In this document: positions 8,745 to 19,887 of the stretch, in pieces
How positions within the stretch are numbered: the first letter of the stretch is position 1
How the letters are laid out: the number at the start of each line of letters is the position of its first letter
From: Rhodoluna sp.
GTDB lineage: Bacteria; Actinomycetota; Actinomycetes; Actinomycetales; Microbacteriaceae
DNA length: 64,000 nucleotides
Assembly (NCBI GenBank): GCA_024641985.1
Contig: JAHEBZ010000003.1
Coordinates: 1 to 64,000 of the forward strand
Direction: 5' to 3'
Position numbers and translations under genes: made by a program
Notes under the pieces: generated by a model
Database searches by the model: none
Seen by the model: the letters and a program-made list of their open reading frames with translations, nothing else
Told to the model about the DNA's origin: nothing

Positions 8745-9115
8745 GGGGATGATCGGTTTCGACAGTGCATGTGTAACTGGATGAAGCGGGTCGAGAATGT
8801 AGCGTCAACTCGTAAATGTCCGCTGCAAACTATAAGTGCTAAATCATCACGCACTGACTTCGCCCTAGCTGCTTAATAGCCCCTAGCCCCGAAGTCCGTT
8901 AGATCAGGTTTGATTTCGTCCTGAACCCTAGCGTCATTTAGAAATCTCGCTGTGTAGTTGTGCCTTAGGGCTACACGGGACTTTAACTTTGGCTGGGCCC
9001 GTCGGTTATGTCGCTTCAAGCTAGCACCGGGGCCAAGCAGAACCTTATTGAAGCTACACCCGTAGAAGAGCTAGAAACTCTGTATTGGACGGGGGTTCAA
9101 TTCCCCCCATCTCCA
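8745..9115 (+). ncRNA. ssrA: tmRNA (ssrA)
   Basis: Transfer-messenger RNA that rescues stalled ribosomes and tags their products. The 5' end GGGGATGATCGGTTTCGAC pairs over seven bases with CATCTCC (9108-9114), leaving discriminator A9115. The T arm GGACGGGGGTTCAATTCCCCC is intact. The CCA is not encoded (CTC follows), so it must be added afterwards. The internal reading frame is annotated separately. Length of 371 nt is normal. Confidence 0.95.
8838..8876 (+). CDS. tmRNA proteolysis tag, AKSSRTDFALAA
   Basis: The resume codon GCT at 8838 begins twelve codons reading AKSSRTDFALAA, closed by TAA then TAG. The C-terminal ALAA is the degradation signal read by Clp-type proteases. The RTDFALAA end resembles tags of other Micrococcales, supporting the taxonomic placement. 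The frame has no start codon of its own and is used only after trans-translation. Confidence 0.85.
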   Translation, partial: AKSSRTDFALAA

Positions 9116-9167
9116 CTCAGGGCGGTGCCGCAAGGCACAAGCCAACGAGTCATCCCATAACAACTAG

Positions 9168-10732: not shown

Positions 10733-10775
10733 AGTAAAGCCCTACTTGACTTATTTAGTCAACCCGTGCTTTACT
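10733..10775. promoter_or_regulatory. Two-tier palindrome with divergent promoters
   Basis: Two nested inverted repeats share one centre (10754): the inner TTGACT/AGTCAA (10746-10762) and the outer AGTAAAGC/GCTTTACT (10733-10740, 10768-10775). Read in either direction, TTGACT is followed after 18 bases by TTTACT, so the dyad encodes two overlapping, divergent -35/-10 promoters for the HicB-like gene and the DoxX-like gene. It is a likely operator for the adjacent HTH protein; that link is inference. Confidence 0.6.
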
Positions 10776-10831
10776 TATCAACTGTAAACGCGAAAACGCG
10801 TAATAACAACTACTTAAATCTAAGGACACAC

Positions 10832-11248
10832 GTGAACATCGTTATCGCCATTGCGGCTATTCTCATCTCTGCGTTTGTAGGCTTCGGCTTCTTTAAGGCC
10901 GGCAGCTTCAAGGCAAAATCATCTGAGGCAGTTTTGTTGAGCGCCGGTTTCGGCTGGGTCGAGAAGGCTGGCATGCCGCTAGTTCGCGTTATTGCCTGGC
11001 TTGAGCTTTTGGGCGCCGTCGGCATTGTTGTAGCTCCGCTTGCAGCCATCTTCTTGCCTGGTTTCGAATGGGCCTTGGTTTGGGGCATCGCGGCTGCGGC
11101 AGGTTTGGCGCTAACCATGGTTGTGGCGTTCGTTATGCACGCAGTGCGCGGCGAGGCAAAATACACCTGGAAGAGCAACCTTCAGCTTTTCGCTGCGGCA
11201 GTTGCTGCTGGCCTACTTCAAGCCGTAATTTCATTGCCTGTTTTCTAA
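10832..11248 (+). CDS. DoxX-like small membrane protein
   Basis: A 138-residue protein with four membrane helices in DoxX-family spacing, including GFFKAGSFKA after helix 1 and an AWLELLGAVGIVVAP helix. Function is not established; relatives are tied to redox or respiratory complexes in some species. GTG at 10832 is used because TAAGGACA precedes it by five bases; a longer frame from 10766 would start within the promoter region. Confidence 0.7.
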   Translation: MNIVIAIAAILISAFVGFGFFKAGSFKAKSSEAVLLSAGFGWVEKAGMPLVRVIAWLELLGAVGIVVAPLAAIFLPGFEWALVWGIAAAAGLALTMVVAFVMHAVRGEAKYTWKSNLQLFAAAVAAGLLQAVISLPVF

Positions 11249-12033
11249 GCTTCCAACTTTTCGATTCCGGCTCTGCTTGCTGCCCGTCTTAGGGTGGCTA
11301 GCAGGGCCGGTGCCGTTAATGTAACTAATGCAGTGGTGGTTATGGCCCGCCCCAGATCCCAGAGCAACCCTCCGGTTAGCACCTCGTATGCGATAAACCG
11401 GTTCAGATTCTCGAAGATCGGCGCACCGGGCAAGTAGCTAATTGACGAACCGGTGCCGGCCAAAAAGGGCCAATTCCATAGAGTCATTAGAGCCCCATAT
11501 GCGAACGCCGAGACAACTCCATAGCCGCTAAGCAGTATTATTTCGCGGCGCCTAATTTGAGTTCGACCGCTGGCTCGAATTTTTGGCAACGCTCCGGCCC
11601 CTAAACCAACAAGGCCAGCGGCCATCATTTGAAATGGCAACCATGGCCCAATGCCACCGGTCAGAAGCGCAGAAACAAGCAATGAGGTGCTTCCAAGAAT
11701 GAAACCAAATCCACTTCCAAACACATACGCGCCGATCACGATGATGAAGAAGGCGGTCTCAATGCCCGCTGTTCCGGCTCCGAGCAATCGCACAACAGCA
11801 TTGAGCGCGGTCAATACGCCAAGCAATGCAAGTTGCTTCGCACCGATGCCTCCGGTTGCAAATTCTGCCAACACCATCAAAAGAATGAGTGGCATGAGCC
11901 CGATGAAAACTGTCTGTGCCAAATTTGCTTCATTTGGCGTTGGGGTTTGAATTAAGAGCGGCCAGGTAAACATCAACAGCGATGCGAGGCCGGCAAAAGT
12001 GATGGTTATGCGCGAAAGCCAAGATTTTGTCAC
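11245..12033 (-). CDS. ECF transporter S component (predicted cobalamin/corrinoid)
   Basis: Substrate-binding membrane subunit of an energy-coupling-factor transporter, 262 residues with about seven hydrophobic helices. Features include GGIGPWLPFQMMAAG in a mid-protein helix, a segment typical of S components related to CbrT-type and other vitamin ECF proteins. It is the last gene of the riboswitch-led operon, joined to the ATPase by a GTGA overlap. Substrate assignment rests on the riboswitch and the two secreted binding-type proteins, not on this sequence alone. Confidence 0.78.
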   Translation of the reverse strand: MTKSWLSRITITFAGLASLLMFTWPLLIQTPTPNEANLAQTVFIGLMPLILLMVLAEFATGGIGAKQLALLGVLTALNAVVRLLGAGTAGIETAFFIIVIGAYVFGSGFGFILGSTSLLVSALLTGGIGPWLPFQMMAAGLVGLGAGALPKIRASGRTQIRRREIILLSGYGVVSAFAYGALMTLWNWPFLAGTGSSISYLPGAPIFENLNRFIAYEVLTGGLLWDLGRAITTTALVTLTAPALLATLRRAASRAGIEKLEA

Positions 12034-13439
12034 TGAATCACTCCATCAATCAGGTGCAATTCTGTGTCGGCAACCTGCGCGCTGAATTCAGAATCGTGGG
12101 TAGCAATAAGAATTGCTTTGCCCTGGCTCTTGAGCGATTTCAACTGTTCTGCAAGATGCCGTTTTGCCACGTAATCGAGGCCCCTCGTGGGTTCATCAAG
12201 CAAGAGCAGGTTTGCGCCCTTCACTAGTTGTAACGCTAAAACTAGAGCGAGTTGCTGCCCAGATGATAAATCGCGTGGATGCAAAGCCGGATTCACCTTT
12301 CCGGCTAGTTGGGCGAAAATGGTGGCGGTTGAATTTGGAGTGACCCCGGCAAATCGATCAGATTCGGCGAGCTCTTCACTGAGGCTGTTCAAGAACAAAA
12401 GGTCGGCAGCCCGTTGCGGAACCATGGTGATTGCCCTGAGGCGTTCGCGAGGTTTGAGATCTCGCGGGTCGCCAAAACCGGCAACCGAGACAGTGCCCGT
12501 TGAAACAGCTTTTGAACCATTGCCGGTGCCTTGGATTGCCCATAGCAGAGTGGTTTTACCCGAACCGTTTGCTCCATGAAGTGCAACAATTTGCCCAGGT
12601 TTGATATTCAAGGTGGCACTCGATACAGCAACCTGGTCGGCATATTTAACGGTTAGCTCGCTGGTTGTGAGAGCCCATTCAACACTTGGTGGCGATAGGG
12701 GTTCGCCGACATCAGCTCCAGCAATCGCGGGTTGCCTCAGGTCATCTTCGAAGCTCCAATGGGTGTAGCCCTTGGCCACTGTTCCATCGTTATTCACAAC
12801 TACCACCGAGTCGACCTTGTCGATGATGTTATGAAACCGATGTTCGGCCACCAAAATTGTGACGCCATGCTCTTTGGCAAGGGCCTTCAAAAGATCTACG
12901 GTTTCGGCCGCCGAATCCAAGTCGAGTGCCGATGTTGGTTCGTCTAGCAAAAGCACTCTTTGCCCAGCCGCAAGAGCCGCGCCAATCGCCACTCGTTGCT
13001 GCTGGCCTCCAGATAGAAAACTCAGCGGGCGATCGAGTAGGTCTTGCAAACCAAGCATTTTTGAAACCCTGGCTAGCTCGGCGCTCATTCGGTCTCGCGC
13101 AAAGCCAAGCTGTTCAAGGCCATACACAAGTTCATCCTCAACCGTGTCGGCCACAAACCAGCCTTCGGGCTGCTGGTTCACATAGCCAACCAACTCTGCA
13201 AGCTCGTGAGGCAATCGGCCGGTCACGTCTTGGTTGTCGATTGTGATTCTGCCTCGAAGATTGCCGCCGGTGAAGTGAGGTGCCAAGCCGTTTATTGCTT
13301 TCAGCAAAGTTGATTTGCCACTGCCCGTGGGCCCGCACACCAGCACAAATTCGCCGGCGGCAAACTCAAGGTTTACTCGGGTTAGCTGTGGCGATTCGGC
13401 TCCGTCGTAGCTAAATGTGAGGTCTTTGATCGAAATCAC
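12030..13439 (-). CDS. Fused ECF transporter ATPase (A-A')
   Basis: A single 469-residue protein carrying both ECF ATPase domains. Domain 1 has Walker A GPTGSGKST (about residue 38), signature LSGGQQQR and Walker B VLLLDEPTSALD. Domain 2 has GANGSGKTT (about 285), a degenerate signature LSSGQQLAL, and LLLLDEPTRGLD. The GTG at 13439 lies in a GTGA overlap with the T subunit and follows GGGGTGG; the longer frame to 13514 has no comparable signal. The fusion replaces the two separate genes usual in Firmicutes. Confidence 0.88.
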   Translation of the reverse strand: MISIKDLTFSYDGAESPQLTRVNLEFAAGEFVLVCGPTGSGKSTLLKAINGLAPHFTGGNLRGRITIDNQDVTGRLPHELAELVGYVNQQPEGWFVADTVEDELVYGLEQLGFARDRMSAELARVSKMLGLQDLLDRPLSFLSGGQQQRVAIGAALAAGQRVLLLDEPTSALDLDSAAETVDLLKALAKEHGVTILVAEHRFHNIIDKVDSVVVVNNDGTVAKGYTHWSFEDDLRQPAIAGADVGEPLSPPSVEWALTTSELTVKYADQVAVSSATLNIKPGQIVALHGANGSGKTTLLWAIQGTGNGSKAVSTGTVSVAGFGDPRDLKPRERLRAITMVPQRAADLLFLNSLSEELAESDRFAGVTPNSTATIFAQLAGKVNPALHPRDLSSGQQLALVLALQLVKGANLLLLDEPTRGLDYVAKRHLAEQLKSLKSQGKAILIATHDSEFSAQVADTELHLIDGVIQ

Positions 13440-14398
13440 GTTTGCCACCCCAGCAAGCTGGCCGTCACTGCCGCGATTGCAGCTGTTGCCACAACATAAT
13501 CTTGCAAAAGCCAAGTTTCCTTTTTATGCCTCGTGCGAATGCTGTTTTTCGAAGTTGTTCGCACGGTGAGCAAAATGCCCAGAAAGCCGGCGGCTAGCAG
13601 TAAGAGCGCAATTAATTGGGAACCAGTTGCGACGAGTAAGAGGAATACACCCACCGAAGTGAGAACTACCGAGCAGAGTGAAATCAACCGCAAAGAAATA
13701 ATTTGTTTCTTGGTTAAGAATCCTCGTCGGCCAAAACCGCGCGAATCCATGCTTGCGGCGAGCGATAGGGATGAATCAATCGTGTCTTCGAGAACTGGAA
13801 CAATAGTGCCAGCGAGTGCGCCAAGACCTTTGCTTCGGCCACGCAGTGAACTTGCTCGTCGCACCCGCTGAAGGCTTTCAATAAGTTGTGGCGCCAGGTT
13901 GATGGCCACCGAAATGGCTGTGGCTATTTCGTATAGAGCCGCCGGCGTTGATTTTAAGAGTTTGCGAGGATTCGCCAGCGTATTGGCAAGCCCGATGCTG
14001 ATGATGATGGCCGCGAGACGCAAGCCATCAGAGGTTGCCGAAACCAGGCTTGAACTCGATAAATTGCCAAGCAAAGTTATGTTGCCACCGAAGCCCAGAT
14101 TTAGTGAAAGCTGGGGCAGGCTCAGAGCAATTGGGCTTGAGTCGTCTGGCAAATTGAAGACAATTCTAAAAATAACCCTGACCGCCACTACAAACGAGGC
14201 CAGCGCCAAGTAGAACTTGAGCGACTGTGACCAGGGCGCATATTCGCGCGCCAATAAAATAATGGTCACCAAAATAGCGATTTGAACTAAAAGCATTACT
14301 GGGTTGATATTGAGCCCAGCGACGATTGCAGACGCTATTCCGAGCAGCCACCAAGATGCGGGTTGAACCCGCGAAGCTTTAAGGCTGAACTGGGTCAT
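13436..14398 (-). CDS. ECF transporter T component (EcfT)
   Basis: Membrane scaffold of the ECF transporter, 320 residues with five to six helices. The two coupling helices that insert into the ATPases are visible as ASSLRGRSKG and SMDSRGFGRRG, matching the conserved Ala-Arg-Gly type motifs of EcfT. It lies three bases after the DUF4430 gene and overlaps the ATPase gene. A dedicated T subunit beside its S and A partners implies a group I (self-contained) ECF transporter. Confidence 0.88.
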   Translation of the reverse strand: MTQFSLKASRVQPASWWLLGIASAIVAGLNINPVMLLVQIAILVTIILLAREYAPWSQSLKFYLALASFVVAVRVIFRIVFNLPDDSSPIALSLPQLSLNLGFGGNITLLGNLSSSSLVSATSDGLRLAAIIISIGLANTLANPRKLLKSTPAALYEIATAISVAINLAPQLIESLQRVRRASSLRGRSKGLGALAGTIVPVLEDTIDSSLSLAASMDSRGFGRRGFLTKKQIISLRLISLCSVVLTSVGVFLLLVATGSQLIALLLLAAGFLGILLTVRTTSKNSIRTRHKKETWLLQDYVVATAAIAAVTASLLGWQT

Positions 14399-14401
14399 GG
14401 T

Positions 14402-14926
14402 TTAGTTGCATCCCCGTGGCGTGGGGTCGAAGCTCGGCAGGGTAGCGCTTGCCGATTCACCAGGGGCAATCCACACCCAAGCTTCATATCCGCCACAAAC
14501 CGGCGTGTGGGTCGCGGCGCCAACGCCGCTCATAAACCAGCCGTCACCTATGTCGGGGTTAGTCACATAATAGGCCCAGCTACCTTCGCTAAAGGTTGGC
14601 ACATCCGCGCAATCCTGGTCGGTAGTCGATGGCCAGTCGTTCAGGCGGCAAACGAATCCCGTTGGATAGTTTTGGGTGCCTTCAACTTCAATGCCCACTG
14701 CCTTGAAGATATCCCAGCTGGTAGAGCCGACGGGCAGCTCAAAGTCAACGGTCTCGACGGGTTTTACTGCCGACATGCCGTAGTCGATCACCAATGTGCC
14801 CGAAAGTTTTTCAAAAGCAACGCCGGGTTTTTCTTGCCCCGAACCTGCGAAGAGGGCAGACCAAAGCCCGCCGATGGCCACGAGGGCTATCAGCGCGATC
14901 AACACTCTTCGCAGATTCAGTTGCAT
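14402..14926 (-). CDS. Membrane-anchored DUF4430 (transcobalamin beta-domain-like) protein
   Basis: A 174-residue protein: an N-terminal membrane helix (about 8-28, no lipobox cysteine), then a DUF4430-type domain with GSTSWDIFKAVGIEV, a GSWAYYVTN strand and a closing WVWIAPGESAS strand. DUF4430 is the family resembling the C-terminal beta domain of animal transcobalamin and intrinsic factor. Six cysteines outside the membrane could form disulfides. It follows the alpha-barrel gene by two bases, so the pair probably works together at the cell surface to bind corrinoid. Binding itself is inference. Confidence 0.72.
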   Translation of the reverse strand: MQLNLRRVLIALIALVAIGGLWSALFAGSGQEKPGVAFEKLSGTLVIDYGMSAVKPVETVDFELPVGSTSWDIFKAVGIEVEGTQNYPTGFVCRLNDWPSTTDQDCADVPTFSEGSWAYYVTNPDIGDGWFMSGVGAATHTPVCGGYEAWVWIAPGESASATLPSFDPTPRGCN

Positions 14927-14928
14927 GA

Positions 14929-15915
14929 TTACTTCTTTAGAAGGTCTAGATAGCTGAGGCCAATCATGGGAACGATTGACTGTGAGGTTGCCATGGCGTC
15001 ACCTTTGCCAGCCGACCATGCGCTAGCCACACCGCCATCAGCGGCGATTTTGGTTTTCAACCAAGTGCCGATGGCCGCAATGTTTTGCCCCGCGGCTTTT
15101 AAGCCCATAGCTGCATACGCGGTTCCGTTTACGTCAAATGCGCCCCAAGATTCCCAGTGGGGTCCTTGTGCATCTGTGATCTTCTGAGCGTTCAACCAAG
15201 CAACGGCCTTTGTAGTTGTGACCTTGTTTGCGGCTGCAAGGCGCGCTCCGCCCAAGCCCTTGAGCGAGGCTAAGGCCTGCAATGCGATGCCAGTTGAGTC
15301 AACCGAGCTGTTGGTTGAATCTGCAGTTTGGTCATAACCGAATCCGCCATCCGTTTTGGCCAAGGCAATCAACTTTGCTTCAACTTTGGTTGCCAAAGCT
15401 GTTTGACCTAAAGATTGCAGCCCAAGCACCACCCACGCATAGTCAAAGGTGTTTCCGGTTGAGCCCGCGATGGTGCCATCGGTGGCGATTGTCTTTTTCA
15501 AGGCGGCAAGCACTTTGTTCGAGTTAGGCGCTACCGGTGCCTTTAGCGCTTTGGCTGTAAACAAGAACTTTCCGGCGAGGCCAGGCAACAGAGTTTTGTC
15601 AGAAGGCGAGGCAAGGTAGTCGAGCCCCGATGCAACTCGCGTGTTCAAGACAAAGTTGACGGCAGCGTTCTGGCTGGCCAGGCTTCGGCCAGCAGCTTTG
15701 CGCTGCAGCATAGATTCAAGCGTGATGCCGAAATCAAATTTGCCTGGTGTAAAACCTTCAACAGCTTTGCCCTCAACAAATTTGCTAGTCAAAAAGTTGC
15801 TGGCTGCGTTGGTGGTTGCATCGGCTGCTTGGGCTGGTGCAGCAACGGCGATTGTGGATGTGATGATGCTAAGGATTGCTGTAATTTTGAGCAACCCAGA
15901 TTTTGGTCCAAACAT
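14929..15915 (-). CDS. Secreted alpha6/alpha6-barrel protein resembling transcobalamin alpha domain
   Basis: A 328-residue exported protein with a signal peptide ending AQA|AD at about residue 30. The mature part is built of prenyltransferase-like helical repeats: TFDYAWVVLGLQSLG, SSVDSTGIALQALASL and NGTAYAAMGLKAAGQ. The C-terminus, QSIVPMIGLSYLDLL, recalls the end of the alpha domain in animal cobalamin carriers (pattern Q..PxLxGxxYLD). The start ATG 15915 follows AAAGG; the frame stays open upstream but crosses the riboswitch. First gene of the B12-uptake operon; probable corrinoid-binding subunit together with the DUF4430 protein. Confidence 0.72.
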   Translation of the reverse strand: MFGPKSGLLKITAILSIITSTIAVAAPAQAADATTNAASNFLTSKFVEGKAVEGFTPGKFDFGITLESMLQRKAAGRSLASQNAAVNFVLNTRVASGLDYLASPSDKTLLPGLAGKFLFTAKALKAPVAPNSNKVLAALKKTIATDGTIAGSTGNTFDYAWVVLGLQSLGQTALATKVEAKLIALAKTDGGFGYDQTADSTNSSVDSTGIALQALASLKGLGGARLAAANKVTTTKAVAWLNAQKITDAQGPHWESWGAFDVNGTAYAAMGLKAAGQNIAAIGTWLKTKIAADGGVASAWSAGKGDAMATSQSIVPMIGLSYLDLLKK

Positions 15916-16014
15916 TTTGGAGCCTTTCGCAATTTGCGATCTGAGTGCGAAGGCGAGTGGCTTTTGCCATTCGACCCCGACCGTAGACCTCGACGGTAAA
16001 TAGGAGTCATTCGC

Positions 16015-16125
16015 TTTTATCGCAGGCATTCCGACTTTTGAAAGTGACATTCAATTTACGGTTGCGGGTCAGTGCCAGATTTTCACTGGCTTTCCCTGTG
16101 AGTAAGCAAAATCTGAAACCATTTC
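16015..16125 (-). ncRNA. Cobalamin riboswitch
   Basis: The minus strand contains the cobalamin aptamer core in order: a GGT near 16120, AGGGAAAGCCAGTG then AAAATCTGGCACTGA, the segment GACCCGCAACCGTAA (16056-16070), and AGTCGGAATGCCTGCG (16021-16036). Between the last two there is only a short TTGAA/TTCAA hairpin, so this is a compact form lacking the P8-P12 arms. About 100 bases of expression platform follow before the ATG at 15915, including a TCGCAA-A-TTGCGA dyad just before the ribosome-binding site. It should switch off the ECF operon when cobalamin is plentiful. Confidence 0.9.
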
Positions 16126-16321
16126 TGGCTTCACATCAAATGTATCAGTTGACGAAGCGTGTGAGCAGAAACCTTCGCTGAATCCAGCGCATATGTTTCC
16201 GACGAGTAACGTTTCATCACATTTATGCAAAAAAGAAGTTTGTTCTAGAAATTCGTCATAGGCTTTTGATACCCAGGGCAATGTCGCCGATGATGTTGCC
16301 TACTCAACAAGGAGAAACTGT

Positions 16322-18184
16322 ATGAAACTGACTCGTATTTCACGAGCTGCGATTGCGATCTCGGCCGTTGCAGGTCTAGCTACCGTTGGCGTTGTTGCGC
16401 CTTCGCAAGCAGCTACCCGCACCACCGTAGTTATCGTTGAGAGCAACGCTTTGACCTCACTTAACCCGAGCACCCCAGACACCAACCTCACAATCAACAA
16501 CGACGTTGCATACATGACTGGCAACGGTTTCAACTACTACAACGCATCAGCGAACCTAGTTAAGAACACCGTTTTCGGCTCTTACAAGATTGTCAAGAGC
16601 TCTGCCAAAGACTTCCGCGTTCAGTACACGGTTGCAAAGGGCAAGGTTTGGTCAGACGGCACCCCAATCACCGGTGTAGACCTCTTGCTTAGCCACGTGC
16701 TTTCAAGCTCGGCTTACTCAAAGAAGGCCGGCCTTGGCGACCCTGCAGACACCTCAAAGGCCCCTGCTTTCAACTCTCTTGGCTATGGTGGCGTCTACGA
16801 CACCCACATCGTTGGCCTACCAGAGCTTTCAGCCGACAAGCAGTCAGTAACCGTGCGTTACGACAGCTTCCAGCCTGACTGGGAGATCACTGGCCCTGGG
16901 CCATCACCGGTTCACGCACTTGTTGCGATGGCTAACGGCAAGACCAAGCTAGGCACCGCGGCAGAAAACCTTGCAGCCAAGGCCGCTTACCTTGCAGCTT
17001 TCAAGTCATACAACTCAACCTTGCTAAACAAAATCGCCAAGGTATGGAGCAACAGCTACAACATCAAGACTGTTAACTCGTCAACCAACCCATTGCTTCT
17101 TGTTGGTAACGGCGCATACAAGATTGCTTCTGCTGTTGCCGACCAGAGCGTTACCTTGACCTTGAACCCTAAGTACAACTCGGGCCCAAAGACCAGCGGC
17201 ATCAAAACCGTTGTTCTCAAGATGATCGCCGATGGAACTGCTGCTTCTCAGGCGCTTGCCAACAAAGAAATCGACATCTACCAGGGTCAGCCAACCGCTG
17301 ACGCTGTTGCTCAGCTAAAGGCAATCTCGGGCGTCACCGTTATCGGTGGAACCAACTCTTGCTTCGAGCACGTTGACCTTCGCCTCGGTTCAATCAACGA
17401 CACCGACTACACCGGCCCATTTGCTGCCAGCAACAACGCTGCAAAGAACGCCAAGGCAAAAGACCTACGCACCGCGTTCCTTCTTGCCTACCCACGTCAA
17501 GAAATCGTTGACAAGCTGATCAAGCCAATCAACTCGAAGGCTGTTGTAGTTAACTCGTCATTCACCCTTCCAGGCCAGACCGGTTACTCAACAATCGTCA
17601 AGAGCTCAGGCGTTAGCAAGTTCACCGCTGGTGACCAGGCAAGCCGCACCGCAGCAGCGCTAAAGCTAGTGCAAAAGCACTACCCAACCGCAGCTGCCGG
17701 CAGCAACGCCGTTACCATCACCCTTCTATGGGGTCAGCCAAGCAACACTCGTCGTGCAGCCGAGGCTGCCCTCGTAAAGGCTGAACTCGCAAAGGCGGGC
17801 TTCAACGTAATCAACACCGGCACCTCAGGTTGGGGTGGCCAGCTTGACAACAACAGCTTCGATGCAGCTTTCTTTGCATGGTGCCCAACGTCAACCAGCC
17901 AGACCGGCACCAACGCTAACTTCTTGTCAGACGGCGGAAACAACTTCATCGGCTACAACAACGCCAAGATGGATGACGTTCTGCGCTCACTAGAGGCCAA
18001 GCTAACCCCAGCTCAGATCACCGCAAAGTACCTTGCAGCAGATTCACTTCTAATCTCTGATGCAGTTACCTTGCCGATCTTCCAGCACCCAGCAGCAACA
18101 GCTGTCAACTCGGCATTGAAGAATGTCAAGCCAGCTCCTCTATCACCTACCTTGGTGTGGAACTTCTGGGAGTGGAAGTACTAG
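16322..18184 (+). CDS. Family-5 extracellular substrate-binding protein (peptide/nickel type)
   Basis: A 620-residue exported binding protein of the DppA/OppA type. The signal peptide ends APSQA|AT at about residue 31. It lacks a lipobox cysteine, unlike most Gram-positive binding proteins, and no C-terminal membrane anchor is evident. Family features include VAKGKVWSDGTPITGVDLLLS near residue 100 and NEIDIYQGQP-like segments. Codons are strongly biased to AAC, ACC, GTT and AAG, more than in neighbouring genes, which points to heavy expression. AAGGAGA precedes the ATG. A terminator-like hairpin follows before the permease genes. Confidence 0.88.
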   Translation: MKLTRISRAAIAISAVAGLATVGVVAPSQAATRTTVVIVESNALTSLNPSTPDTNLTINNDVAYMTGNGFNYYNASANLVKNTVFGSYKIVKSSAKDFRVQYTVAKGKVWSDGTPITGVDLLLSHVLSSSAYSKKAGLGDPADTSKAPAFNSLGYGGVYDTHIVGLPELSADKQSVTVRYDSFQPDWEITGPGPSPVHALVAMANGKTKLGTAAENLAAKAAYLAAFKSYNSTLLNKIAKVWSNSYNIKTVNSSTNPLLLVGNGAYKIASAVADQSVTLTLNPKYNSGPKTSGIKTVVLKMIADGTAASQALANKEIDIYQGQPTADAVAQLKAISGVTVIGGTNSCFEHVDLRLGSINDTDYTGPFAASNNAAKNAKAKDLRTAFLLAYPRQEIVDKLIKPINSKAVVVNSSFTLPGQTGYSTIVKSSGVSKFTAGDQASRTAAALKLVQKHYPTAAAGSNAVTITLLWGQPSNTRRAAEAALVKAELAKAGFNVINTGTSGWGGQLDNNSFDAAFFAWCPTSTSQTGTNANFLSDGGNNFIGYNNAKMDDVLRSLEAKLTPAQITAKYLAADSLLISDAVTLPIFQHPAATAVNSALKNVKPAPLSPTLVWNFWEWKY

Positions 18185-18222
18185 AACTTAGGTTCTAGTT
18201 GATCCTCAACTGAACGAAAAAA

Positions 18223-18251
18223 GGCACTCAGAGAAATCTGGGTGCCTTTTT
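18223..18251 (+). terminator. Terminator/attenuator between binding protein and permease genes
   Basis: A 10-bp stem (18223-18232 with 18237-18246, one T-G pair), GAAA loop and five T. It would let the binding-protein mRNA accumulate far above the downstream permease genes, with read-through or a second promoter serving the rest. Confidence 0.88.
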
Positions 18252-18348
18252 CGGGTGGAGGATCATTAATTAAATCTTCTGGTTTAGGCTGATTACGAAT
18301 TCCTTTGGGAATGCCCTAAACACAATGTTGTGAACGAAAGGGATCATT

Positions 18349-19887
18349 TTGATCGCCTACATCTTGCGCCGACTATCGGCCCTGGTTGTCATCCTGTTTG
18401 GCTCAAGCTTCATCATCTATAACTTGAGTGCAATCTCTGGCGACCCCCTCGAAGCGCTACGAATTAGCCAAGACCCAAATGCTGCTCAGCAGATCATTAC
18501 TCTTACGCGCGACTTGCAGCTTGATGTTCCTCCACCCCTGCGCTACTTCTTGTGGCTAAAAGGCGTGCTGGGGGCATTTGTTGGCCAAGTTGACTTCGGC
18601 ATGACTCGCGATGCTCAGTCGGTTACCGATGCAGTGGCTGCTGCAATTCCAACCACCATTCGCCTGGTGGTTGGCGCCACCGTTATTGCTATCATCCTCG
18701 GCATCACCATCGGCATTGTCACAGCACTTCGCCAATACAGTCGTTTTGACTACGCGATGACCTTTTTCGCATTCCTTCTCTTCTCACTTCCAATTTTTTG
18801 GTTCGCAGTGTTGCTCAAGCAATACCTTGCCATCGGTTTCAATAATTTCTTGACCGATCCGCAAGTCAGCGCACCCTGGATCATCGGGCTGTCGCTTTTT
18901 AGCGGTCTATTCTGGGCCTCCGTTATCGGTGGCGACCGACGCAAGGTGTTCACTATTTTTGGCATAGCGGCGGTGGGTTCTGCTGCAGTAATCATGTTGC
19001 TCGGCTCACTCGACTGGTTCCGCAACCCCGGCCTCGGCCCGATTGTGATTTTTGGAGCCAGCGTTGGAATTGCATTTGCGGTTACGCAGCTTTCGACCGG
19101 CCTCGCGGTTAGAGCGGCACTGAAGTCGGCGCTTGCCATGGCCGTTTTTGGTTTGGTCGCTTATTACCCGGCTCAGTGGGTAATGGAGCAAGAAAATCAT
19201 CTGCTGAATTTTGTTCTAATGGCTACCGTCACAGTTGCTGTTGCAATTTTGACTAGCCGCTTTTTTGCCAAAGAGGATCGCGGATCGGTCACCCGAACAG
19301 CAATCATCACCGCAGCTTTCGTTGCAATCTTGATCATCATCGACAAGTTCATGCAGACCTGGGCTCCATACATGGAAACCGATGCCATCAACTACCGCCC
19401 GGTTCCAACCGTTGGTCAGGTTAACGACCTACTTGAGCCAGGCAATTTCTGGATTAGTTCGCTAGATGTTCTGATGCACATGTTCTTGCCAACAGTTGCG
19501 CTTACTCTCATCTCGTTTGCTGGCTACATCCGCTATTCGCGCGGTTCACTTCTCGAGGTTTTGAACCAGGATTACATTCGCACGGCTCGCGCCAAGGGCT
19601 TGACCGAGCGCACCGTGATCATGCGTCACGCATTCAGAAACACAATGATCCCGTTGACTACTCTGATGGTTGTCGACTTCGCCGGCATCATCGGTGGAGC
19701 AATTATCACCGAGCGCATATTCGGTTGGGTTGGCATGGGAACGCTGTTTAACCAAGCCATCAACACGATGGACCTAAACCTTTTGATGGGTGTGTTCTTA
19801 GTAACCGCCACCATGTCGGTAATGGCAAACCTCATCGCCGACCTTCTCTATTCGGCACTTGACCCACGCATTCGAGTTGGAAAGTAA
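18349..19887 (+). CDS. DppB/OppB-type ABC permease with enlarged membrane insert
   Basis: Membrane subunit of the peptide-type transporter. The N-terminus (MIAYILRRLSALVVILFGSS) and the C-terminal half, with EAA-loop DYIRTARAKGLTERTVIMRHAFRN near residue 405, are typical. At 512 residues it is about 200 longer than usual: between roughly residues 165 and 365 an insert adds about six extra hydrophobic helices. TTG at 18349 is chosen because AAAGGGA precedes it by six bases. The start codon lies within GATCATTTTGATC, a short perfect hairpin. Confidence 0.87.
   Translation: MIAYILRRLSALVVILFGSSFIIYNLSAISGDPLEALRISQDPNAAQQIITLTRDLQLDVPPPLRYFLWLKGVLGAFVGQVDFGMTRDAQSVTDAVAAAIPTTIRLVVGATVIAIILGITIGIVTALRQYSRFDYAMTFFAFLLFSLPIFWFAVLLKQYLAIGFNNFLTDPQVSAPWIIGLSLFSGLFWASVIGGDRRKVFTIFGIAAVGSAAVIMLLGSLDWFRNPGLGPIVIFGASVGIAFAVTQLSTGLAVRAALKSALAMAVFGLVAYYPAQWVMEQENHLLNFVLMATVTVAVAILTSRFFAKEDRGSVTRTAIITAAFVAILIIIDKFMQTWAPYMETDAINYRPVPTVGQVNDLLEPGNFWISSLDVLMHMFLPTVALTLISFAGYIRYSRGSLLEVLNQDYIRTARAKGLTERTVIMRHAFRNTMIPLTTLMVVDFAGIIGGAIITERIFGWVGMGTLFNQAINTMDLNLLMGVFLVTATMSVMANLIADLLYSALDPRIRVGK

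What the first reader, a model, noticed from the sequence alone, without database searches (positions are those of the whole stretch)
11245..16125. Riboswitch-controlled B12 uptake operon with a split transcobalamin-like pair and its own ECF transporter
Seen: a compact cobalamin riboswitch leads five co-directional genes: a signal-peptide protein of alpha/alpha-barrel repeats, a membrane-anchored DUF4430 protein, EcfT, a fused EcfA-A' and an S component. Known: animal transcobalamin and intrinsic factor consist of an alpha6/alpha6 barrel plus a beta domain, and DUF4430 resembles that beta domain; the barrel protein even ends in a QxxxPxxGLSYLD segment like the alpha domain end. Inference: the two exported proteins clamp a corrinoid between them and pass it to the S component, a two-gene version of the eukaryotic carrier feeding an ECF importer. 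This would be a surface capture route for a vitamin-dependent freshwater bacterium.
Basis: partly seen in the sequence, partly recalled or inferred. Interest (0 to 1): 0.9.

Follow-up and report, generated by a model that had tools for sequence, protein, structure and literature searches.

The report
Bacterial two-part vitamin B12 catcher
A small freshwater bacterium that appears unable to make vitamin B12 carries a B12-controlled set of genes for an importer plus two exported proteins, one of which is predicted to have the shape of half of our own blood B12 carrier, so bacteria may catch the vitamin much as animals do.

Summary
On the minus strand a cobalamin riboswitch (15973-16126) leads a packed five-gene operon: exported alpha/alpha-barrel protein, membrane-anchored beta protein, EcfT, fused EcfA-A', S component. 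The aptamer just misses Rfam's threshold (36.1 vs 36.5 bits) but shows covariation over 27 sequences. It precedes the operon in 41 of 46 genus loci (the other five are cut by contig ends) and, at E 0.001, in 32 of 39 other actinobacterial genomes with the beta protein (19 over Rfam's cut-off). The beta protein matches no Pfam family, DUF4430 included, yet its AlphaFold model retrieves transcobalamin as the top 14 of 350,542 PDB chains. The barrel is an alpha6/alpha6 toroid, not specifically transcobalamin-like. Ten of 120 further loci fuse barrel and beta domain in one frame, six in the transcobalamin order. The genome has MetH and a B12-type ribonucleotide reductase; CobS and BtuF-type proteins were not found. 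Best reading: a split transcobalamin-like corrinoid catcher feeding a dedicated ECF importer. Binding, clamp and hand-off are inferred. Burroughs et al. (2007) predicted such systems in other bacteria; new are the actinobacterial, riboswitch-led, two-gene form and its spread.

The parts
15973..16126 (-). Cobalamin riboswitch: compact (class II-like) aptamer plus conserved downstream hairpin whose loop can pair with the aptamer loop (possible kissing loop)
   Evidence: RF01689 16016-16110, 36.1 bits; RF00174 16004-16126, 27.3 bits; own model R1 15973-16102, 129.4 bits, the window being part of the model; covariation
15922..15954 (-). Predicted hairpin that pairs the Shine-Dalgarno region of the barrel gene (expression platform, inferred)
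   Evidence: Minimum-energy fold in the window; Shine-Dalgarno paired in 17 of 30 relatives folded
14929..15915 (-). Exported alpha6/alpha6 barrel (toroid) protein, 328 aa from ATG 15915
   Evidence: AlphaFold mean pLDDT 91.2, twelve helices of 8 or more residues and one of 6; SQHop_cyclase_C E 3e-4, below cut-off; lipobox-like cysteine (loose pattern) in 15 of 38 genus homologues, not in the window's own copy
14402..14926 (-). Membrane-anchored beta-grasp protein with the predicted fold of the transcobalamin beta domain
   Evidence: AlphaFold mean pLDDT 90.0, helix 2-25 then beta domain; PDB top 14 matches all transcobalamin; no Pfam match beyond a chance-level one at E 0.24
13436..14398 (-). 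EcfT (transmembrane coupling component)
   Evidence: Window copy has no Pfam match at E 0.1; 7 of 10 copies tested, the window's among them, match CbiQ over cut-off
12030..13439 (-). Fused EcfA-A' ATPase (two ABC domains)
   Evidence: ABC_tran E 2.4e-47, two stretches; ECF ATPase models below their equivalog cut-off; start GTG 13439 overlaps the EcfT stop
11245..12033 (-). S component (substrate-binding membrane protein)
   Evidence: ECF_trnsprt PF12822, 39.8 bits against cut-off 30.7; 52-70% identity to 27 genus homologues

Best explanation
A cobalamin-repressed operon for scavenging B12. When cellular cobalamin is low, the riboswitch lets the five genes be expressed, probably by freeing the ribosome-binding site (inferred). 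The barrel protein is exported, and in many relatives it appears to be lipid-anchored. The second protein is held at the outer face of the membrane by its N-terminal helix. Together they act as a two-gene version of transcobalamin: the beta protein, and probably the barrel from the other side, hold a corrinoid (inferred). They pass it to the S component (inferred), which the EcfT/EcfA-A' motor uses to bring it into the cell. There it serves MetH and a class II ribonucleotide reductase. Shown here: gene content, riboswitch, linkage, folds as predicted models, fusions in relatives, genes for B12-dependent enzymes. Not shown: corrinoid binding, complex formation, transport.
For: Riboswitch with covariation, found in 42 of 47 sources (window plus 46 genus loci that have the beta protein). 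The 5 misses (L033, L037, L050, L068, L075) have little or no sequence left upstream of the first gene. Phylum survey: 40 of 296 genomes, own included, in 34 of 193 genera have the beta protein. Of the 39 others, 32 have a same-strand cobalamin riboswitch match (E 0.001) within 3.5 kb upstream, 19 of the 32 over Rfam's cut-off; roughly 0.04 expected by a simple chance model that takes 4 Mb per genome. Beta protein fold: top 14 PDB matches are all transcobalamin, including its isolated beta domain with and without cyanocobalamin (TM to target 0.68-0.69), then a Ruminococcus protein and haptocorrin, and intrinsic factor at rank 21. Fusions: 10 ORFs in 120 loci (L106-L145, L146-L225), six barrel-then-beta and four beta-then-barrel. 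Pfam DUF4430 over cut-off lies on the same strand in the same gene cluster in G256 and G137, the only 2 of 39 genomes with a match over cut-off. Own genome: MetH-type ORF, class II RNR; not found at E 0.001: CobS, Peripla_BP_2, class I RNR small subunit.
Against: No sequence model links the beta protein to DUF4430: 0 of 39 and 0 of 71 members at E 0.1; 0 PDB sequence hits with the family profiles at E 10. The fold match is modest by numbers: TM by query length 0.41-0.47, rmsd 3.9-6.9 for the top 17. The barrel is closer to cyclases than to transcobalamin. The barrel is missing in some operons: in L059, L074 and L076 the beta gene directly follows the riboswitch; no barrel was found in 11 of 40 phylum loci and 28 of 80 named loci, some cut by contig ends. 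G064, G300 and G331 have the beta protein with a fused T-A-S gene and no riboswitch match in the genome. 12 of 60 genus genomes, 3 of the 20 good ones, have no beta-protein match. The window aptamer is just below Rfam's threshold. The genome is about 91% complete, so absences are weak evidence.
Confidence: 0.74

Rival explanations
1. Only the beta protein (with the S component) handles B12; the barrel is an accessory exported toroid with another job, such as wall attachment or a catalytic role, and there is no two-sided clamp.
For: Barrel absent where the beta gene directly follows the riboswitch (L059, L074, L076) and not found in 11 of 40 and 28 of 80 loci; barrel fold is nearest to cyclases; the PDB holds a cyanocobalamin complex of the isolated transcobalamin beta domain (5np4, title listed).
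Against: Barrel and beta domain fused in one frame in 10 of 120 loci, in both orders (three of the ten, L109, L111 and L113, come from one genus); barrel found in 40 of 46 genus loci, three of the six without it being at contig edges or broken; invariant Q312 and D306 in 34 of 34 genus barrels.
Confidence: 0.17
2. The operon imports cobalt or another B12 precursor rather than a complete corrinoid; cobalamin riboswitches also control cobalt importers.
For: EcfT relatives match the CbiQ cobalt-transport family; in C. difficile a cobalamin riboswitch precedes an operon described as a cobalt ECF importer (PMC11477304, passage).
Against: Transcobalamin beta fold; CobS not found in the genome, so free cobalt would be of little use; the S component matches PF12822, and no CbiM/CbiN match was listed for the five proteins.
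Confidence: 0.05
3. The ligand is another tetrapyrrole such as heme, for which Rhodoluna is reported to be auxotrophic.
For: Heme auxotrophy reported for Rhodoluna (PMC12381374, passage).
Against: A cobalamin riboswitch precedes the operon in 41 of 46 genus loci and in 32 of 39 other genomes of the phylum survey; the fold is that of a cobalamin carrier.
Confidence: 0.02

Closest known systems
Transcobalamin-type SLBB proteins of bacteria with CbiO/CbiQ (Burroughs, Balaji, Iyer, Aravind 2007, PMC1796856)
   Same: Exported transcobalamin-type beta-grasp domain, alone or fused to an alpha/alpha toroid in either order, in operons with CbiO-like ATPase and CbiQ-like permease, predicted to scavenge B12 (passages and first part of section 7)
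   Different: The paper lists the clade in low-GC Gram-positives, planctomycetes and, less often, euryarchaea; its main text has no 'riboswitch' and names actinobacteria only for ComEA; its supplement was not seen. The present family is actinobacterial, outside Pfam DUF4430, mostly split into two genes, and riboswitch-led.
Animal transcobalamin, haptocorrin and intrinsic factor
   Same: Beta-domain fold; alpha6/alpha6 toroid partner; six actinobacterial fusions keep the barrel-then-beta order
   Different: Two separate bacterial proteins, one membrane-anchored; no detectable sequence similarity of the beta domain; barrel not specifically transcobalamin-like; feeds an ABC-type importer, not a receptor for endocytosis
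ECF-CbrT, vitamin B12 importer of Lactobacillus delbrueckii (species recalled; PMC5997447: title and start of abstract in the listing, two reference-list passages)
   Same: ECF-type importer for vitamin B12 (from the paper's title)
   Different: Profile of the present S component finds only a FolT chain at E 0.33 among PDB sequences, no CbrT at E 10; dedicated extracytoplasmic proteins are encoded here. That CbrT works without such proteins is recalled, not looked up.
BtuFCD
   Same: Extracytoplasmic B12 capture feeding an ABC importer (recalled)
   Different: BtuF belongs to Peripla_BP_2 (recalled), which has no match in this genome at E 0.001

Membership tests
Cobalamin riboswitch (Rfam CL00101) | Score at or above the family's gathering score | tested here: inconclusive
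   Window 36.1 vs 36.5 bits for RF01689, 27.3 for RF00174: not reached. 16 of 19 relatives searched (of 29 loci held) reach it.
Cobalamin riboswitch (Rfam CL00101) | Conserved structure kept by compensatory changes | tested here: met
   27 sequences, 96.4% of cells paired, 10 of 28 pairs with change on both sides, four of five measures at 0 of 500 shuffles, the fifth at 251 of 500, far above slid controls
DUF4430 (Pfam PF14478) | Match to the Pfam model | tested here: not met
   No match for the window protein, 0 of 39, 0 of 71. Sub-threshold matches (E 0.08 and 0.19) overlap the beta-protein match in G115 and G130.
Transcobalamin-type SLBB superfamily (Burroughs 2007) | Transcobalamin beta-domain fold | tested here: met
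   Top 14 PDB matches of the model are transcobalamin, E 2.6e-4 to 1.2e-3; TM 0.68-0.69 to the isolated domain, 0.43-0.47 by query length; model pLDDT 90
Transcobalamin-type SLBB superfamily (Burroughs 2007) | Insert after the helix carrying a conserved aromatic or hydrophobic residue | tested here: inconclusive
   Segment between helix 72-77 and strand 92-95 of the model holds an aromatic at position 87 in 38 of 39 and 60 of 71 members; geometry of the insert was not inspected, no coordinates available
Transcobalamin-type SLBB superfamily (Burroughs 2007) | Association with alpha/alpha toroid and CbiO/CbiQ genes | tested here: met
   Neighbouring genes; fusions
Eukaryotic cobalamin-binding protein alpha domain (Pfam PF01122), for the barrel | Match to the Pfam model | tested here: not met
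   Window no match; 1 of 34 members, E 0.0021, 2 of 39, best E 0.00026. Of 10 barrels scanned singly, 4 match at E 0.05-0.32, all below the cut-off.
Transcobalamin mechanism | Cobalamin held between alpha and beta domain | not testable with these tools
   No complex prediction or binding assay available
ECF importer | S component, T component and two ABC ATPase domains | tested here: met
   S: PF12822 over cut-off; A-A': two ABC_tran stretches; T: no Pfam match in the window copy, but 7 of 10 copies tested over the CbiQ cut-off; for the fused L074 copy only 25 of 49 families were shown
ECF importer for cobalamin (CbrT) | Sequence relation of the S component to CbrT | tested here: inconclusive
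   Profile search of PDB sequences lists only FolT, E 0.33; whether a CbrT chain is in that set was not checked, and no direct comparison was made

The most novel reading that the evidence does not exclude
An ECF importer, a class thought to dispense with external binding proteins (recalled), works here with a dedicated two-lobed extracytoplasmic corrinoid clamp made by two genes. This split actinobacterial pair and the animal transcobalamins are descendants of one bacterial capture module, the animal protein being the fused form.
Probability: 0.5. Interest if true: 0.8.

Novelty: new variant of a known kind. Interest (0 to 1): 0.62.

Why it matters
This freshwater actinobacterium seems to depend on B12 made by others, and how such cells catch it at trace levels is not known to me. 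If the reading is right, many actinobacterial genes that match no Pfam family form one riboswitch-marked B12 capture system. Animal B12 carriers then have a bacterial counterpart that can be dissected by genetics. Rhodoluna lacicola, apparently of the same genus, is naturally transformable and its genes can be replaced (PMC11577799, passages).

Tried and rejected
PDB sequence hit 21nr (TLP-IPT) for the beta protein, E 4e-6: rejected, it is the sum of four near-identical repeats of 8-9 bits each with single-match E 10-14, and it vanished with a family profile. The ATG at 16050 as the barrel start: rejected because it lies in the aptamer and many homologues start at an MFGxK-like motif. His253, conserved in 33 of 34 genus barrels, as a cobalt ligand: only 11 of 39 in the wider set, so not argued.

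Literature: a CbrTUV search gave nothing of use; DUF4430 is named in 6 papers, none on bacterial B12 uptake by its title; searches on transcobalamin-like bacteria, ECF with intrinsic factor, CbrT, transcobalamin beta domain, SLBB, Rhodoluna with B12, and cobalamin riboswitch with squalene listed no report of this actinobacterial system by title. Listings were capped, and only open-licence PMC papers are held.
Full report
OBSERVATION. Five co-directional ORFs occupy 15915-11245 on the minus strand, with gaps of 2 and 3 nt and a 4-nt overlap between EcfA and S; EcfA most likely starts at GTG 13439, overlapping the EcfT stop. The ORF finder's first start (ATG 16050) lies inside the aptamer; ATG 15915 opens with the MFGPK motif, and similar openings are seen in many homologues. 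The window belongs to a 1.38-Mb genome in 6 contigs, 91.03% complete. Contigs of its genus relatives have the same lengths as named contigs labelled Rhodoluna, Microbacteriaceae or Micrococcales (for example G043:C9 and JAURKU010000002.1, 26182 bases), so the genus is inferred to be Rhodoluna or close to it.

RIBOSWITCH. At Rfam gathering scores the window lists only a tmRNA and a tRNA. A local search gives RF01689 (AdoCbl-II) at 36.1 bits, 0.4 below its threshold, E 5.7e-7. Of 29 relatives held as loci of 2-3.5 kb I searched 19, because of the size cap: 19 of 19 have a cobalamin-clan match upstream of the barrel and 16 exceed the listed family's gathering score. In an alignment of 27 distinct sequences, 96.4% of cells in my structure pair, 10 of 28 pairs show changes on both sides, and no shuffle of 500 reaches the covariation score; the number of further pair types is not above the shuffles (251 of 500). 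The kissing-loop pairs (GACC in the aptamer with GGUC in the downstream hairpin loop) hardly vary, so they are plausible but unproven; 3 of 27 break one pair. A model built from this alignment finds the element in 42 of 47 sources (window plus 46 genus loci; 27 of the 47 built it); the five misses have little or no sequence left upstream of the first gene. It finds it in 58 of 80 named loci at E 0.1, two of these only at E above 0.001. Downstream, the minimum-energy fold pairs the ribosome-binding site of the barrel gene in the window and in 17 of 30 relatives, which suggests control of translation. The element is the only RF00174 match of the genome at E 0.001.

GENES. Pfam: S component PF12822 over cut-off; EcfA-A' two ABC domains; barrel SQHop_cyclase_C below cut-off; beta protein nothing meaningful; EcfT nothing in the window copy, but 7 of 10 copies tested, the window's among the 10, are over the CbiQ cut-off. 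By a loose pattern 15 of 38 genus barrels carry a lipobox-like cysteine; the window's beta protein begins with a helix at 2-25, read as a membrane anchor. In the beta family six cysteines are conserved; the first two are absent together in 7 of 39 members, the window included, and one further member lacks only the first, as expected of a disulfide outside the cell.

FOLDS. AlphaFold models built from window and named-locus sequences only: barrel pLDDT 91.2, beta protein 90.0. The beta model's 14 best PDB matches are all transcobalamin, including the isolated human beta domain (5no0, 5np4; TM to target 0.68-0.69), then 3u7z of Ruminococcus gnavus and haptocorrin; unrelated chains begin at rank 18 (E 0.08) and intrinsic factor comes at rank 21. 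TM-scores by query length are modest (0.41-0.47) with rmsd 3.9-6.9 for the top 17, partly because the membrane helix and linker have no counterpart (my reading). The barrel has twelve helices of eight or more residues and matches terpene cyclases, complement-type domains and GH76; of the 50 matches shown, transcobalamin appears at rank 49. Profile searches agree. So the beta half is specific, the alpha half only of the same fold class.

SPREAD AND CONTEXT. In the genus, 48 of 60 genomes (17 of 20 good ones) have the beta protein (one of the 48 only at E 2e-4). In 296 genomes of the phylum, own included, 40 do, in 34 of 193 genera. Of the 39 others, 32 carry a same-strand cobalamin riboswitch match (E 0.001) within 3.5 kb upstream, 19 of the 32 over Rfam's cut-off, with about 0.04 expected under a rough chance model that takes 4 Mb per genome. 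The exceptions are G363, G064, G300, G331, G119, G100 and G292 (G292 has a riboswitch before another, weaker copy). Barrel and beta genes occur together in 40 of 46 genus loci, 29 of 40 phylum loci (from 39 genomes) and 50 of 80 named loci, which include genus members. Ten ORFs in the latter 120 loci fuse both domains: L109, L111, L113, L114, L131, L165 (barrel first) and L175, L213, L220, L221 (beta first); L109, L111 and L113 are from one genus. A stop-free frame across both domains cannot be two genes, assembly errors apart. In G256 and G137 a DUF4430 protein over Pfam's cut-off sits in the same gene cluster on the same strand; these are the only 2 of 39 genomes with such a match. Against a strict pair: in L059, L074 and L076 the beta gene directly follows the riboswitch, and many loci have two or more beta ORFs (28 of 80, 6 of 40).

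NEED FOR B12. The genome encodes a MetH-type protein and a class II ribonucleotide reductase; searches at E 0.001 found no class I small subunit, no CobS and no Peripla_BP_2 protein. Other B12 genes, other importers and class III reductase were not tested, nor were these families in other genus members.

MECHANISM. I commit to B12 scavenging by a split transcobalamin-like catcher feeding an ECF importer (0.74), the beta-only rival at 0.17. Steps shown: operon, switch, linkage, predicted folds, fusions in relatives, genes for B12-dependent enzymes. Steps inferred: ligand binding, clamp, hand-off, transport, mode of control.

PRIOR WORK. Burroughs et al. 2007 (PMC1796856: abstract, passages, first part of section 7, and the reviewers' comments read) predicted B12 scavenging by bacterial transcobalamin-type domains with toroids and CbiO/CbiQ genes, and derived the animal carriers from low-GC Gram-positives. 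Its main text lists that clade in low-GC Gram-positives, planctomycetes and euryarchaea, names actinobacteria only for ComEA and has no 'riboswitch'; its supplement was not seen. The present system is therefore a new variant of a predicted kind, and I saw no experimental test of it in the listings and passages of the papers searched.

Noticed in passing
window 8745-9118 (+): tmRNA gene with tag peptide AKSSRTDFALAA.
   Followed up: no
window 16322-19887 (+): Divergent from the operon: a family 5 solute-binding protein (SBP_bac_5) and an ORF that looks like an oligopeptide-type permease (not scanned); an SBP_bac_5 homologue lies upstream of the operon, on the other strand, in many genus relatives.
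   Followed up: partly
window 10766-11248 (+): Convergent DoxX-like membrane protein, kept next to the S gene in many of the genus loci.
   Followed up: partly
L012 157-244, L014 3184-3271, L016 144-230, L019 225-312: Glycine riboswitches over threshold, back to back with the B12 riboswitch on the opposite strand, in four of the 19 genus relatives searched.
   Followed up: no
L122, L123, L133: Beta protein next to a single ORF of about 1000 aa that fuses EcfT, EcfA-A' and S, with no RF00174 match at E 0.001 in those genomes; possibly another substrate.
   Followed up: no
L074, L075, L076: Genus members with a fused EcfT-EcfA ORF of about 500 aa and no barrel found; L075 and L076 are cut by contig ends.
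   Followed up: partly
L198, L205, L211: Some actinobacterial loci carry two or three cobalamin riboswitches and more than one beta-protein gene around one ECF operon.
   Followed up: no
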